Shown: positions 1 through 63,727 of the stretch, one piece after another
How positions within the stretch are numbered: position 1 is the stretch's first letter
How the letters are laid out: each line of letters starts with the position of its first letter
Assembly: GCA_037576195.1 (NCBI GenBank)
Contig: CM075102.1
Coordinates: forward strand, 4,464,001 to 4,528,000
Length of the DNA: 64,000 nucleotides
Direction of reading: 5' to 3'
Origin: Phytoseiulus persimilis
Lineage: Eukaryota; Arthropoda; Arachnida; Mesostigmata; Phytoseiidae
Notes under the pieces: model-generated
Databases searched by the model: none
The model's input: only the letters and a program-made list of their open reading frames with translations
What the model was told of the DNA's origin: nothing
Program-made: the position numbers and the translations under genes

Positions 1-4374
<4,374 letters not shown>

Positions 4375-27100: not shown

Positions 27101-27380
27101 GATCCGCAACAAATTCGAAGAGCATTAGCGCCAGCCTCGCTGGCATATTCAACTTTCCCGAAGCAGTTCAATGGATTCGAACGTCTCGCTGCTCGCATGT
27201 TTTCGTATCTCGCGAGTTCGATACATTTTGTGACTGCTCGTCGAAGAAGTGGAAATGTGCCCGACCTGATATTTCGATCCGCAGAGACGATCGGTCTCTG
27301 TTCGATAAGTCGACAGAACGAGTCGTGGTGTTACTTGCACCGCACGGACTTTCGTTGCAGTGATCCCGTTGTCCAACATC
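24146..27380. other. Gene-poor stretch between the mobile elements and the type II membrane protein gene
   Basis: No recognised gene. The first ~500 bp (24150-24610) is G-rich with repeated GGGGCGC words and may belong to the truncated element. The last ~200 bp should contain the promoter and 5' UTR of the gene starting at 27381. A possible 3' splice site (ttcgttgcag) ends at 27360, which would allow a non-coding first exon. Confidence 0.4.
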
Positions 27381-28109
27381 ATGGTGCTTCCGAACGCGGA
27401 TACTCCGAACGAGAGTCCGCTCCTGCGAGCTTTTTATCAACGTTTCTTGATGAAGAAAAAGTTCCTCCAGATCTTGAGCCTCGCCGTCATTTGCGGCCTC
27501 TCGATAACAATGCTCTATCCGAACACGTACGCCCTGCGAAAGGAACAACAAACAGAAGAGAGAGTCTGCGTGAACGCAAGTGAGGATCCTCTGCACTTTT
27601 GCTTCGACGTCGCCCCCCTCTTGAGGGACGTGCGGGCGTTTCCCCATTTCGTGGAAGGCGTTTTCAAGTACGAGTTTTCGTTTGGCTCTCATCAAATTCC
27701 GCTGCAAATCGAGTTCGAACGCGTGGTAAAAATCACCATCGGCTGCTTGCCGCTCATGAGAAACACCACCGAGACGTTGCACGTCATCTTCGGACTCGAT
27801 CGCCTCACGGTGAACGGGAAGCCCGTCGAAGCTACCGTTCCGGAATCCTACGCGTTCCGCTGCGCGCACAACGTCCCGAACCATCTGTGTTCGATGTGGC
27901 TGGGCTCGCTCTACTTCCGCAAGGGTTTCGATCTGGAATACATGCCGGAATACATGCAAAAAAATTCTACTCCGTGCCGCGTGCGACCAATGATGACTGT
28001 CGTCAGGGAAAGGGGAGCGATCATGTGCAACTTCCCTTTCCTCAACCTTCTGTTCGGTGGCTGTGGACCCGAGAACTCTTCGGAACGGAAGAATGGGAGC
28101 CGTTTGTGA
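27381..28109 (+). CDS. Predicted type II membrane glycoprotein, unknown family (242 aa)
   Basis: A single open exon with a good start context (aacatcATGG) and TGA stop. The N-terminus is a short polar segment ending in RFLMKKK. It is followed by one hydrophobic helix at residues ~28-46 (FLQILSLAVICGLSITMLY) and a luminal or extracellular part of about 195 residues. That part has four N-glycosylation sequons (NAS, NTT, NST, NSS) and about eight cysteines (VC, FC, GC, RC, LC, PC, MC, GC), as expected for a disulfide-bonded secretory-pathway domain. The basic residues before the helix favour the type II orientation. A polyadenylation signal follows 45 bp after the stop. The antisense frame (27168-27959) is a shadow. 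I do not recognise the family; it may be lineage-specific. A ttcgttgcag acceptor at 27360 suggests an upstream non-coding exon. Confidence 0.8.
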   Translation: MVLPNADTPNESPLLRAFYQRFLMKKKFLQILSLAVICGLSITMLYPNTYALRKEQQTEERVCVNASEDPLHFCFDVAPLLRDVRAFPHFVEGVFKYEFSFGSHQIPLQIEFERVVKITIGCLPLMRNTTETLHVIFGLDRLTVNGKPVEATVPESYAFRCAHNVPNHLCSMWLGSLYFRKGFDLEYMPEYMQKNSTPCRVRPMMTVVRERGAIMCNFPFLNLLFGGCGPENSSERKNGSRL

Positions 28110-28153
28110 ATCAAGTCGCCTCCCGCGTTTTTCATGTCAAGGAGACACTTGAA

Positions 28154-57780: not shown

Positions 57781-60700
57781 CCAGCGGACGAACGGCTCAG
57801 AAGACCGACGAATCAGACTGTGGTGGCTGGACTGGTTCAGACAGCTGATGCTCGGGGTCACCCCTAGGTTCTCAGTGGGTGCAGTTTTAGCCGCTGCATA
57901 GGTCTTTGTGGTGAGCGACTTTGTGAGCGAGCAAGCCATCCCGAACGAGTGAGCGAGCGAGCGACTGAGCTAGATGTGAGGTCTTCACGCAGCGGGATAC
58001 GTGCTACGACAGTGCTATAGATCGACGCGGAGCTACTTAGCCAAGCGGCGATAATCCGAAACGAAAGCCTTCCAAAACGGAGCCCCTGTGAGAGCAGTAC
58101 AGCATCAACAACATCTACCGCAACTATAACGACAACGACCACCACGACCGCCACAGAGTACAGCACCGCTTCACACGCCTTCGCGGGCGAGCGATAGTGG
58201 GAAACTAAAACAAGAGAGGAAAGTTTCATACATGCCACCAACGACCCTGCACAATGACTTTGCGGATCTGGAACTCAAAGCACTCACACTCCGGTGTCCT
58301 CGGGCTTGAAAAGTAGATCAATAATTGACCAGCCTAACCGAGCGAACACACGACGCTGCAAAGAGATTCTGGTCTGGGGATTCCACTCCCTCGAACGGTG
58401 TGAATTTACGGATGTGTGCTTCCCGTTAAAAATTGATGACGTCACCCGTGCTCATCTCCTTCTCCAAGCACTTTGTCATCAGTCTCCTCCACAAGTAATG
58501 GAAGTTCAACCGACTCTCTCCTGAGCGGACACTCTGCCTCGCGGAGTTCCGCCATTTCCTCAATCTACGAACTGTGGTCACGAATCTCTCAGGGCCCCAT
58601 TGGGTCATTTGCTTGAGGGATCCTGAAGTCATTGCGCTTAGCGAGCTCTCTGACTCAGTCGATCAAGCCATTCGAGAGGTCCCAAAAACTGCAGCAGGTT
58701 TCCGGAACGTAAACCCCATACCTCGATGACGCTTACCCAGTTGAAAGAAAACTTCTGATCGGAAACCAGTATGGTGTCGAAGCCTCCAGAGTCTAGACAC
58801 GTAGGAGCACCATTCGCATTTTAGTAGAAAAGAAAACCTAACACCGATTTCGGCTGCGCTCAGAGAGAGGGTTTGAGAACGAAAATAGTTATGTAGTTTC
58901 TGTCTTACGAAACTGCCTCATATTCGCTGGAGTGTAGCCATCATCGATGAAGAAGGCAGTGGAATCAGAACTCGAGGAATCTAACTCCTCAGAATACCGC
59001 CCTTCTTTTCGAAGTAGAGGTTCCGCGGAGTCCACTGTCTGACGGTCCAGTTTTCACAAGTTATTCCGGCGGGATCTCAAATGGCTCCGTTTGAGCCAAG
59101 AAGTGTTCCGCTTGATCCTGCAGTACCTCATTGTCCGAAGAAACTGAGTGCCCAGATACTGTAGCCGTGGAATTCAGGGAGGGAGTCCCAGGGACGGCGG
59201 AGGAAGACCTACGCCAGATTCCAGTCGGCAACCGAATTCTCTCTCGGTAATATCGATGCCGAATGCGAACTGGATGAATTATCATCCTCGAACCAGAATC
59301 TACTCAGATTAGGTCCTAATGAGTCTTTTATTCGTTTTGGTGGTCGCCGCGTTGACCTGCCTAATCATTGCATCATCATCACCTGCCTATCCCCGGTCGC
59401 GATCCACGACTCATTTCGCCTCCGATCATAAGTCACAGCCTGGGTCGCAGAGAAATCGTGAATCATGATTTTCCCGCGTTGCTCTCTCGAGATTCCAACA
59501 CGTGCTCCGGAGAATCGGCTTCACCCGCAACTTCAGTTCGGTTTCCCATCGGGCGGACCTGGAAACGCGTTCTCGTGAAATTCTGAACTTGAGACTTTGT
59601 ATAGGAACGAAGAAAAGTTGAATCACAAGTGATAGAGAGAAAATATTGGATTCCGGGAATCGGCCAGCCGACTGTACCAGTGGCAGGATATCGGGTGAAT
59701 GGCTGAAGAACGTATTCCGCTCATTCGGGATGTCTGAAGTTCCAAGTTCGTTGATGAGGTGTGCTACTCCATGACGAGTGGAGCTTAGATGTTTTTTCGA
59801 AATTATCCCTTGATTGCAACGGATCAATCCTAGGCGATTGATGGAATCATTTTGGAAAATAACTCGGGCTCCCAGGCGCTAGTAGTCAATCACTGTGAAC
59901 GAGGGTTTCCATTTTCGCCATTATCGAGTTTGAACCACGCGTCGGAAATTTCGGTTCCCTGAAATGCATCCGAATGCGGGTTTCCGATGTGCTTCTCTCG
60001 CGAGAGTCGCTCCAAGGACGTTCTCTGGTTGGTATCCTAGTAGTTTCTGGATTCGGAGCTGACCATGTCCGATCGTGAGGTTTGCACTCCCAACTTAGAC
60101 GTAGATGGTCATTGTGCGATCCTCCGGACGGAACGAGCGAAACTCTAACTCCGAGCCCTCCGCGCTCAACCACTCGGCGTGACCGTGATTCTTCTCTCTT
60201 CTAATTTTGCGTTCAATGTGATCTAAGGGTGGAACTATGGAACCATGTTGAGAGGAGCGATGTCTCAGCACAAGAAAGATACGAATTTTCAAAGCGCGCT
60301 CAGAATCAACACAGTAACGGGTGGAGTCGCTCGGTGATCATCGTGACAGCATCAACGTCGACGACAACGATGACGAGCGCAGTCTTAAAAGCTGAGCTAG
60401 CGGCGGCATTCTTCTACTCTACTGTTGTGTGTGTCCGCGTTTGTGATGAGTGTGTGCATAAATTGAATGAACTGAAATTCAACTTCGGTTTATTCTCCGT
60501 CTGTGTTTGATTCTCTGCCGTTGTGGGCGTGGGGCGGCTTCATAAGAAGAAGCAGCAGATTGGGGACTCAACCCGGATTCTTTCAGCGCTGCAACTCTGC
60601 CAAATCGCCAAATTCCTTCCCATCGCTCTTTCACAGTTGTCTCCGTCAGCGTCATCTTCAAAGAGTCGAGTCGCTCCACGGCATGATTGGAGCTCGATTA

Positions 60701-60800
60701 TTTCCCCATTTTAGATAATGTTGACGAGCGCCATGAGCCAGGCATCTCTATTCTGGTAGTTCCAATCGTATACAGCGACTTTCCGATAGTGGAAACGGCC
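57781..60800. other. Stretch upstream of the kinase-like gene
   Basis: Around 58090-58230 the + strand is rich in CAACGA/CCACGA words, like a 5' UTR, and leads to a short frame MPPTTLHNDFADLELKALTL at 58232. Another short protein-like segment (FTDVCFPLKIDDVTRAHLLL) lies at 58396-58455 before a gtaatg. Neither can be tied to a gene. The 60.2-60.8 kb part should hold the promoter of the kinase-like gene. Confidence 0.3.
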
Positions 60801-62204
60801 ATGAGCGATCCTCCCGGACAAGGTCACGGCTCGATCCTCGCGCTCTTGACGATTGCTCTCGTTCTCCGCTTCGAGGGAAACACTCAAACTGCTATTCCTC
60901 CAAATGCTGGGTATGCTCCGTGGATCGGGTCATCACAACAGAACTGTTTCGATCCCGAGTTTGAGGTTTCGTTTTTGAATGATGACTCAATGAAAATTCT
61001 CCTTGGAAGCGATCCGTAGACCACTGTCAGGAGGACTCTTCAGTGGTCGTGGCCGGTCTCGGTTGTCTCTCAGCAGGCACATCTGAAGCCGAGTCACATG
61101 GCTCTGCACAAGACTCGCCCGGAAAACCTTTCGAAATCGCTGAAGACCTCGGGAGCTTCACTTGTGAGGGTGTTGAAGTTCATGTACTAATAAGGATCGG
61201 CTGCGGGGTGAATGGCTCTTTTTTCAACGTGAGCGGGAGAAAGCCACCGATTTTTCGAGAGAGGGTTCGGGGGAGATGAGGGATGTTCACGGCATTCTAC
61301 CGAATTTCCAGGCTGAACTGGGTTCCGAAGCCCGTACCTTGAAAATATCCAGGAATTCCGAGGATTGTTCATCCTTGAAAGACGCCATTTCGAAAGAAGT
61401 GAGCTTGAATGTCCCTGTGTGCCGCATTGAGCCGTTGAAAATCATCGCTCCTTCTCTCTCATTTTTACTCCGATTCCGTCAGATCGAGATGAACAAAGCG
61501 CTGATGACTCGCTTTCATGGGAATTTCTTCCCCATTGTCGAGAACGAGATCGTGTTCTGCGACCACAGTATTCTCGTGCTGCAATCTCTGTACGGCAACA
61601 TCTTCGATTGTTTCAAACACAGGCCTGCTTCGGTGGATGCCCTTGGCATCATCTTGTTCCAGCTGATGCGCGCACTCCACGCTCTAGAGAAAATGGGCCT
61701 TGTTCATCTCAACGTTCGCACGCAGAACATTATGTGTGTCAGCGAGACGCGGAACAATTGCCGCGTGAAGATCTGTTGCGGACGGTATCCCCAGAGTGGA
61801 GGCTTCGAAAGATGCATCGAAAGAACTCGACTCCCCGAAACAGGTCATCGTCCTCATTGTCAGCTCGCCAACTCCAACATTACCCGGTACTGCTCGGAGC
61901 TGAAGATAGAGTCCGAAGTCTTCTCTGAAGAGTGAGTTTTACCCTGCCAAGTGCCACCATTGCGCTTTCCGAGGCATCTCCCTCGACATGAACGGGAATC
62001 GAAACTTGAAACAGCGCAACTCGGATTCGTTCGTCTCTGAAGGAACTCCTTCGGCTCTCTAACTTCTACTTCTCCATGATTCCGTCTCGCAGGGAAGACC
62101 GAGCGCCCGAAGTCATTCTGAATTACGCGAAGCCTTCGACAACAACTGACGTGTTCGGCGCCGCGATTGTCATGCAGAAACTCTATTTCAACAAAACTCC
62201 GTAG
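60801..62204 (+). CDS. Kinase-like protein with N-terminal hydrophobic leader; catalytically dead (pseudokinase), probably a decaying copy
   Basis: Four exons fit by phase: 60801-60965, 61031-61228, 61312-61931 and 62093-62204, with GT-AG introns of 65, 83 and 161 bp. The N-terminus has a hydrophobic segment (SILALLTIALVL, residues 11-22), so a secreted or membrane-anchored product is likely. The kinase fold follows: glycine loop IGCGVNG (111-117), lysine in ARTLKI (Lys132), a possible helix-C Glu180, and HGNFFPIV. The catalytic loop is HLNVRTQN (253-260), where HRD Asp is Asn255 but Asn260 is kept. DFG is CCG (276-278), APE is intact (332-334), and DVFG sits in subdomain IX (347-350). An in-frame TAG at 62202-62204 ends the frame after Pro364, before subdomains X-XI. 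An alternative donor gtagtt at 62201 joined to 62347 would bypass it. Kinase fold is recognised from motifs; secretion and pseudogene status are inferred. No named family fits. Confidence 0.7.
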
Positions 62205-63033
62205 TTTGCGCCGTGCCCTTCGCTCACAGAGAATTTCAATGACAACAGCATCTTTCAGTATGTGGTCTGAGTCTTCCAAGAAGTGAGGATCGACTGTTCG
62301 ATGCTTCTGAACTCTATCTGCTCTCCTGGACGACTGCGACTCACAGAGGTCTCCCCTCATTGTTTGAACCGTTGCCAACGGTTTTTGTGGGGTATCGTCA
62401 TTAAGTCGCCAAGCACTTCGAGCAGAGGAACAAGCAGCGGCATCTGAAGAAACTGGTCGCTCCTAAAACGGGCATGAAACTGGTTCGGAGTTCTGTATTC
62501 GATTCCAACGCATATTGAGGTGGAAGTTCAGCTCTTGAAGAAAGATTGCGAAAATCCGGTTTTGATCGCCAGAGAGATGCATGGACGAGTTCAACACGGA
62601 GCTGAAAGAAACCGAAAAAGCGCGAATCATTGTATGCTGTAAGAATATGCTGAGCTACGTTGACCGACCCGGTCCTGGAGGAGTGTTGAAAGCGGAGCTT
62701 CTACCGAAGATGGGCAACTATTTCTTTGACTTGTCTGTACTGTCAAAAGCTCAATGAGACAACAGAAACCCGTGCATGTGGACAATTGAATACATCTGGT
62801 TCCGTGGGAAATTTCCTTCATTTCCGATATCGTTCTTTTCTTGTCGCCTCAACCGATGTCTTCTCCCTGTTGATCAAATCCGCGAGTATTCCGAAGCTCG
62901 ACCGCTCCATGACGGTAACCAGACCGAGCCGAGCGTCGATTGGGAAGCTCGGCTTAACGATTTCGTTCCGATGAACAGTAGTTCTGCTATTGAGAGGGCG
63001 AACGCTGCGATCACCGCATTGCACATCGGATAG
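62205..63033 (+). pseudogene. Broken C-terminal lobe of the kinase-like gene
   Basis: Coding-like pieces continue after the stop but change frame repeatedly. FAPCPSLTENFNDNSIF runs to a possible donor at 62258. GLPSLFEPLPTVFVGYRH starts at 62348 and ends at TAA 62402-62404. THIEVEVQLLKKDCENPVLI then AREM at 62512-62580 is followed one base out of frame by MDEFNTELKETEKARIIVCC at 62581. That piece runs on to a TGA at 62755-62757, then PVDQIREYSEARPLHDGN to AITALHIG ends at TAG near 63033. The +1 shift at ATGCATGG (62577-62584) looks like a single-base insertion. The pieces are consistent with a kinase C-lobe and tail, but only the order and proximity support that. Confidence 0.45.
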
Positions 63034-63487
63034 GTACTTCGAATCTTGATGGTTCGATCATATCTCAGATCGTATGGGATTCACGGCTTTGTCTCTCGCC
63101 GAAGTTATTGTTGTTGCTAACATTGATGATGCCGGTCGCTTGCTTCTGGCAATTTTCGTTGTCGACGTTCTTCTGGTATGATACAGGGCCGGATTCAATG
63201 ACGCATGACAGAAGAAGATGCCACTCCTCCGAAAAGTGTTGGCATAGATCACAGCCATTATTTTCTTCGGCGTCTTCCTTCCCTTCCCGGCTCATCACTT
63301 CATCAGCATTGAACAAATACAGAGGAGAAGCCTCGGAAAAACAGAGTGCCTCGGGTGAATCGAGGAAGACAGAAAAGAGACGAGCGAACGAACGAACGTC
63401 AAAAACAGAAACAGCTCCGCGGTGTACCGCCGAGTTCGAGCTAAATCCAGCAATTGAGCTTCGAACTGGCGAACGATATCTGTTCGA
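63034..63487. other. Stretch after the kinase-like locus
   Basis: No recognised gene. A short (GAAC)n run occurs near 63385-63400. Confidence 0.35.
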
Positions 63488-63727
63488 GTGTATCGTCGCT
63501 GCAAGTTCGAGGCCTCGGGCAGAAACTACGACAGTGGCATCCTCTCATTTTTCTTCGATTCCGTGAATGGCGGGGCTTGCAGAGTACGCGTCAGAGGAAC
63601 GGCTCCAGTTGGGTTTTGGCTTGAAACTCTTATGGGCTGTCTCTCCACCTTGCTTCCGTCTTCCGAATTCGTGGTTAATCGAGCCGATTATGTTCCAATT
63701 CACTCGATATTGGACACTGAGCGATAG
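63488..63727 (+). CDS. Weak candidate terminal exon, unknown product
   Basis: About 79 open codons including FEASGRNYDSGILSFFFDSV, GFWLETLMGCLSTLLPSSEF and VVNRADYVPIHSILDTER, then TGA. Its composition is more protein-like than background, and it could be the tail of the kinase-like locus or of another gene. No clear acceptor or family match; treat as tentative. Confidence 0.2.
   Translation: MYRRCKFEASGRNYDSGILSFFFDSVNGGACRVRVRGTAPVGFWLETLMGCLSTLLPSSEFVVNRADYVPIHSILDTER

What the first reader, a model, noticed from the sequence alone, without database searches (positions are those of the whole stretch)
60801..62204. Leader-bearing kinase-fold gene with a dead catalytic centre
The predicted spliced protein keeps the kinase scaffold: glycine loop, ATP-binding Lys132, the Asn of the catalytic loop, APE and the subdomain IX Asp. 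It has lost the HRD Asp (Asn255) and the DFG Asp (Cys276). It also begins with a hydrophobic leader instead of a cytosolic N-terminus. A secreted or membrane-tethered pseudokinase is unusual and could act as a scaffold, decoy or nucleotide sensor. Three introns fit by phase, so this is a duplicated gene, not a processed copy.
Basis: partly seen in the sequence, partly recalled or inferred. Interest (0 to 1): 0.72.

Follow-up and report, generated by a model that had tools for sequence, protein, structure and literature searches.

The report
Decaying copy of a HIPK-like kinase
This stretch holds the middle part of a duplicated, fast-changing relative of the animal kinase HIPK that has lost its catalytic residue and stops early, so it is most likely a decaying gene copy rather than a new secreted signalling protein.

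Summary
The kinase core is real. Window 61501-61773 matches the HIPK family (49.4 bits, 0 of 100 shuffles; best solved-structure hits HIPK3/HIPK2), and 62100-62186 matches its APE-to-alphaF exon (19.1 bits, 0 of 100). Between them an intron (61932-62092) fits the codon and phase (2) of the intron in all four HIPK-type paralogues I spliced from the same genome. The catalytic loop reads H-L-N instead of H-x-D.

The rest is weak. Glycine loop and Lys132 get only suggestive support. 'DFG Cys276' lies in a stretch without detectable homology. The leader is unusually hydrophobic, but its splice sites and codon usage look like background. The kinase scaffold is not kept: an in-frame TAG follows alphaF, inside an exon that is open in 4 of 4 paralogues, and subdomain XI was not found on either strand of window-45001-to-69000. 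Three of four paralogues keep both catalytic Asp residues.

Best reading: a degenerating HIPK-family paralogue, probably a pseudogene. A live truncated pseudokinase is possible, a secreted one unlikely. No transcripts or related genomes could be consulted.

The parts
61501..61773 (+). catalytic-loop exon core: alphaD-alphaE-HLN catalytic loop to ...RVKI, homologous to HIPK
   Evidence: 49.4 bits against the four-paralogue profile, 0 of 100 shuffles; HIPK3 E 8.6e-6; codon score of 61390-61773 +0.109 per codon, within the range of paralogue exons
   Evidence: 10.7 bits, 16 of 100 shuffles; codon score -0.072, uninformative because two paralogue exons score about as low
61932..62092 (+). intron, phase 2, same codon as the intron before RAPE in all four spliced paralogues
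   Evidence: donor AGAGTGAGT 7.3 bits, acceptor TCTCGCAG 7.6 bits; family phase and place; against: the aligner preferred 61859-62097 in phase 1
62093..62201 (+). APE-to-alphaF exon (EDRAPEVILNYAKPSTTTDVFGAAIVMQKLYFNKTP)
   Evidence: 62100-62186: 19.1 bits, 0 of 100 shuffles; Pfam Pkinase E 0.04, below cut-off; codon score +0.101
62202..62204 (+). in-frame TAG stop, codon 35 counted from the RAPE Arg; the four paralogues run 43 codons plus 2 bases from that Arg to the next donor with no stop
   Evidence: translation; paralogue coordinates
61229..61311 (+). probable intron, phase 0, at about the place of the family's first kinase-domain intron
   Evidence: donor 8.3 bits (0.2% of GTs), acceptor 4.2 bits (9.5% of AGs)
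61031..61228 (+). possible glycine-loop exon (IGCGVNGSFFN); tentative
   Evidence: G-loop plus Lys pair 6 of 1000 shuffles but codon score -0.296 and N-lobe alignment at chance
60801..60965 (+). claimed hydrophobic leader exon; membership in this gene not supported
   Evidence: 1 of 317 background ATG-started stretches is as hydrophobic, but codon score -0.151 and donor matched by 41% of GTs

Best explanation
It is a duplicated, spliced paralogue of the HIPK kinase that has diverged fast, lost its catalytic Asp, has an early stop after alphaF and no recognisable subdomain XI. It most likely makes no working kinase and is a gene copy in decay. Shown: HIPK-family origin of the catalytic and APE exons, loss of the HRD Asp, the in-frame stop, no subdomain XI in 24 kb around it. 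Well supported: one ancestral intron. Inferred: that it is not expressed or not under selection now. Codon usage in the two core exons still looks coding, so the decay would be recent or partial.
For: HIPK placement: (window groups with the four HIPK-type rows at 93/92 support, just under the tool's mark of 95; it has the longest end branch, 2.41 against a median of 1.09). Family phase-2 intron. Stop inside an exon that is open in 4 of 4 paralogues. Subdomain XI: best score on either strand in window-45001-to-69000 is 16.0 bits, against 35.0, 43.0 and 58.7 for three held-out paralogues. No C-lobe extension above shuffles. Three of four paralogues keep both Asp residues.
Against: Codon usage of 61390-61773 and 62094-62201 (+0.109, +0.101 per codon) is as coding-like as in the paralogues, and the core motif is still recognisable at about 30% identity, so it evolved as a protein for most of its history. 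Only one stop surely lies within an exon. Stretch 62566-62757 also has coding-like codon usage (+0.086) without known homology, so a very divergent 3' part cannot be excluded. The alphaG/CMGC-insert piece could not be judged: held-out paralogues score 21.8 to 27.4 bits and unrelated places up to 21.4. No RNA or cross-species data.
Confidence: 0.6

Rival explanations
1. A live, rapidly evolving, truncated pseudokinase: the protein ends after alphaF and acts without catalysis, for example as a binding decoy for HIPK partners.
For: Coding-like codon usage in both core exons; strong splice sites at 61932, 62092 and a strong donor at 61229; another paralogue (L023) has lost its DFG Asp while still aligning through subdomain XI, so non-catalytic HIPK relatives may be tolerated here.
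Against: Truncation before subdomain XI; no N-lobe alignment above chance; the stop lies inside an exon of constant length in 4 of 4 paralogues.
Confidence: 0.28
2. One reading: a secreted or membrane-tethered pseudokinase with a signal leader.
For: The ATG at 60801 starts an unusually hydrophobic segment (1 of 317 background stretches is as hydrophobic), and the exon 61031-61228 has no ATG in its frame, so some upstream exon is needed (frame 60986-61279).
Against: Splice sites joining it are at background level; exon 1 and 2 codon scores -0.151 and -0.296 against a non-coding mean of -0.153; no N-lobe alignment above chance; truncated C-lobe.
Confidence: 0.06
3. A processed (retroposed) copy of HIPK.
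For: The family introns before the alphaE exon and before DFG are not seen in the window copy (family splice sites; window sequence).
Against: The phase-2 intron before RAPE is retained with strong splice sites.
Confidence: 0.03
4. Chance open frames with no kinase ancestry.
For: Long open frames are common in this window; the Pfam score is below its cut-off.
Against: 49.4-bit and 19.1-bit matches, each with 0 of 100 shuffles as high, in the right order and separated by a family-type intron.
Confidence: 0.02

Closest known systems
Homeodomain-interacting protein kinase (HIPK) of the same genome (locus L010, C3:37371872)
   Same: Catalytic-loop exon 30% identical; same phase-2 intron before RAPE; APE and subdomain IX Asp kept
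   Different: HAD to HLN; no recognisable DFG or subdomain XI; introns before the alphaE exon and before DFG not seen; early stop
HIPK-like paralogues L011, L021, L023 (C3, 37.2-37.9 Mb)
   Same: Also divergent relatives of HIPK with largely the same intron positions; L023 has also lost the DFG Asp
   Different: Align through subdomain XI; 3 of 3 keep the HxD Asp; on another contig
FAM20A, a secretory-pathway pseudokinase (listing and start of abstract of PMC4421793)
   Same: Would be a model for a secreted pseudokinase
   Different: No sequence comparison with it was run; a secretory leader is not supported here

Membership tests
HIPK family (CMGC group) | Catalytic-loop region closest to HIPK | tested here: met
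   PDB best hits HIPK3/HIPK2; best own-genome hit after itself is the canonical HIPK; tree fork 93/92, not starred
HIPK family (CMGC group) | Intron positions shared with in-genome HIPK genes | tested here: inconclusive
   Phase-2 intron before RAPE fits exactly; first intron similar in phase and place; introns before the alphaE exon and before DFG not seen; aligner's own choice differs by some bases
HIPK family (CMGC group) | HxD catalytic Asp | tested here: not met
   HLN in the window, HAD/HGD in 4 of 4 paralogues
HIPK family (CMGC group) | DFG Asp | tested here: inconclusive
   Contiguous reading gives CCG, but the segment's homology is at chance level
HIPK family (CMGC group) | Kinase domain through subdomain XI | tested here: not met
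   TAG at 62202-62204
HIPK family (CMGC group) | alphaG and CMGC insert | tested here: inconclusive
   Controls 21.8-27.4 bits overlap unrelated places (up to 21.4); best place downstream of the gene 17.5 bits at 63432
Secreted pseudokinase | N-terminal signal sequence joined to the kinase domain | tested here: inconclusive
   Hydrophobic segment present, splice link at background level; no signal-peptide predictor and no transcripts available
Processed pseudogene | No introns | tested here: not met
   Family phase-2 intron
Duplicated (unprocessed) pseudogene | Disabling change relative to intact paralogues | tested here: met
   Stop inside an exon open in 4 of 4 paralogues
Duplicated (unprocessed) pseudogene | No constraint or expression | not testable with these tools
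   No RNA reads, and no relatives of this genome are held (note)

The most novel reading that the evidence does not exclude
A HIPK-derived gene family in this animal is shedding catalysis step by step (DFG Asp lost in L023; HRD Asp and subdomain XI lost in the window copy), and the window copy is a live, truncated, non-catalytic HIPK decoy.
Probability: 0.12. Interest if true: 0.5.

Novelty: new member of a known kind. Interest (0 to 1): 0.2.

Why it matters
Mainly as a caution: a plausible spliced model can make a decaying kinase copy look like a new secreted pseudokinase. If the copy is alive, it would be an extreme truncated pseudokinase within a small, fast-evolving HIPK family, a group with nuclear signalling roles in other animals (the last point is recalled, not from a call).

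Tried and rejected
C-lobe relic beyond the stop: it looked convincing by eye, but the local test was reached by 38, 40 and 33 of 60 shuffles under three settings, and the anchored test by at least 84 of 100 shuffles and 60 of 62 other stretches of the window under both settings. Dropped.

A fifth family intron with donor at 62258 was considered because its phase fits; it scores 0.3 bits, which 44% of GTs reach. Dropped. A strong donor at 62283 (7.6 bits, phase 0) lies after two in-frame stops and out of the family phase; not used.

Retrocopy: considered from the missing introns, rejected on the shared phase-2 intron.

Aligner: with cheap introns the home-made protein-to-DNA aligner gave a nonsense model. 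With intron cost 11-13 bits it aligned the window to profile 51-197 under two settings and 8-197 under a third with an implausible N-lobe; all three placed the intron at 61859-62097, phase 1, and I overrode this by hand in favour of 61932-62092 on family phase and splice scores. In the held-out controls L021 aligned with one stop (2569) whose exon structure I did not resolve, and L011 was read through one intron.

N-lobe elsewhere: the best place for the N-lobe profile upstream is 60875-60952, in another frame than the leader, 16.5 bits, 1 of 100 shuffles; unrelated places in the 24 kb reach 15.2 (plus) and 21.2 (minus) bits and held-out paralogues only 12.7 to 23.0, so I take it as chance.

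Limits: 60 to 1000 shuffles per test; the profile rests on four paralogues spliced by hand; the codon model was trained on 3049 codons of stop-to-stop frames from five kinase loci and its coding yardstick is not held out; splice models rest on 21 hand-listed donors, one misplaced and dropped by the GT filter, and 19 hand-listed acceptors, which include the four paralogues' own versions of the intron being judged.

I left the odds as they were.

Full report
SETTING. The window is a 64 kb piece of a 52 Mb contig in a 181 Mb, 127-contig assembly. A DNA search with 60600-63600 finds only itself in the genome; that search skips simple repeats and very common words.

THE OBSERVATION. The frame 61177-61935 is open for 252 codons. 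Length alone means little: eight other stop-to-stop frames of at least 252 codons lie in window 5001-60500, and seven of the eight have negative codon scores; one of the seven (27171-28136, minus strand) is antisense to the eighth, 27309-28106, which looks coding. Homology is the real evidence. Pfam Pkinase matches at 17.7 bits (cut-off 31.7). Phmmer against solved structures gives HIPK3 at E 8.6e-6 and HIPK2 next. In the same genome the best other match is the canonical HIPK on contig C3 (E 5.2e-5).

THE FAMILY IN THIS GENOME. A HIPK exon query returned 19 places at E up to 0.01, the window included. I spliced by hand four HIPK-type genes, all on C3 between 37.2 and 37.9 Mb: L010 (canonical), L011, L021 and L023. 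The other 14 places I did not splice. The tree used eight other kinase loci (seven fetched, L038). It groups the window row with the four at 93/92 support, below the tool's own mark of 95/80, with midpoint rooting and a warning about long branches; the window row has the longest. Queries with the L023 and L021 exons returned 6 and 24 places at E up to 0.1; I did not study the new ones. The catalytic motifs are HAD/DFG (L010), HGD/DFS (L011), HAD/DFG (L021) and HGD/TGF (L023): 3 of 4 keep both Asp residues, 4 of 4 keep the HxD Asp.

WHAT IS SOLID. Against a profile of the four paralogues, 61501-61773 scores 49.4 bits (0 of 100 shuffles) and 62100-62186 scores 19.1 bits (0 of 100). All four paralogues have a phase-2 intron three codons before RAPE (splice sequences; phase 2 at this place in 4 of 4 alignments, with the L011 donor misplaced by the aligner). 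The window can be read with the same intron in the same codon and phase, 61932-62092, with donor and acceptor scores of 7.3 and 7.6 bits, which 0.8% of GTs and 1.3% of AGs in the noncoding part of the window reach. Against this, the aligner left to itself chose 61859-62097 in phase 1 under three settings; either way an intron separates the two exons. So the locus is a DNA-level duplicate of a HIPK-type gene. The catalytic loop reads HLN for H-x-D.

WHAT IS TENTATIVE. The intron 61229-61311 has a strong donor and lies, in phase 0, near the place of the family's first kinase-domain intron. Earlier searches for the G-loop and the Lys/alphaC segment were also at chance (16 of 100 and 86 of 100).

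WHAT FAILS. (a) DFG: the stretch after RVKI scores at chance (16 of 100), and in the family an intron begins just before this point; calling Cys276 a substituted DFG Asp is not justified. Its codon score, -0.072, decides nothing. (b) Scaffold: the frame ends at TAG 62202-62204. In 4 of 4 paralogues the same exon runs 131 bases from the RAPE Arg to the next donor without a stop; in the window the stop is codon 35 from that Arg. No GT between 62094 and 62202 scores above 3.0 bits. Extension past the stop does not beat shuffles. Subdomain XI, which scores 35.0 to 58.7 bits in three held-out paralogues, reaches at most 16.0 bits on either strand in window-45001-to-69000. The alphaG/CMGC-insert piece and the N-lobe piece could not be judged this way: held-out paralogues score 21.8 to 27.4 and 12.7 to 23.0 bits, while unrelated places reach 21.4 and 21.2. 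But the donor 60966 is matched by 41% and the acceptor 61030 by 22% of background sites, and the codon scores of exons 1 and 2 (-0.151 and -0.296) lie below all ten paralogue exons tested and at or below the non-coding mean of -0.153. In the training genes 6.8% of 55-codon and 0.4% of 61-codon windows are that low.

CODING SIGNAL. The core exons score +0.109 (61390-61773) and +0.101 (62094-62201) per codon; ten paralogue exons score from -0.081 to +0.127. Of stop-free windows in the noncoding part, 3.8% of 128-codon and 1.9% of 36-codon windows reach +0.10; these overlap one another and include the coding-like frame at 27309-28106. So the core evolved as protein; whether it still does cannot be told from one genome.

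MECHANISM. Most likely the copy arose by duplication of a HIPK-type gene, diverged quickly once free of kinase function, lost the HRD Asp and subdomain XI, and is now a pseudogene or a truncated remnant (inferred). If it is alive, it probably acts without phosphotransfer.

LITERATURE. Listings and starts of abstracts only; no paper was opened. Terms HIPK/pseudokinase/mite (12 of 232 papers shown) and HIPK/gene duplication/arthropod (2 of 2 shown) showed no paper on HIPK paralogues in mites. Searches (predatory mite genomes; FAM20A; pseudokinase reviews) were seen the same way.

VERDICT. A real but ordinary feature: a degenerate member of the HIPK family. The secreted-pseudokinase reading is not supported.

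Noticed in passing
L023 (C3:37214136, minus strand): A HIPK-like paralogue that keeps HGD and aligns through subdomain XI but reads T-G-F where DFG should be: a better pseudokinase candidate than the window copy, though its N-lobe was not resolved.
   Followed up: partly
C3:37.21-37.86 Mb (L010, L011, L021, L023): Four HIPK-type genes within about 0.65 Mb, two of them about 13 kb apart on opposite strands: a local HIPK family expansion.
   Followed up: partly
window 27309-28106 (+): Open frame of 266 codons with coding-like codon usage (+0.107 per codon), a hydrophobic stretch after an internal Met, and no Pfam match at E up to 0.01.
   Followed up: no
window 50-4241 (+): Frames with an APC10-like domain (E 1.6e-5, above cut-off) and a RING finger below its cut-off, which look like the 3' end of a MYCBP2/Highwire-type gene (name recalled, not from a call).
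   Followed up: no
window 62566-62757 (+): Short frame downstream of the stop with coding-like codon usage (+0.086) and no Pfam match; could be an unrecognised 3' part or chance.
   Followed up: partly
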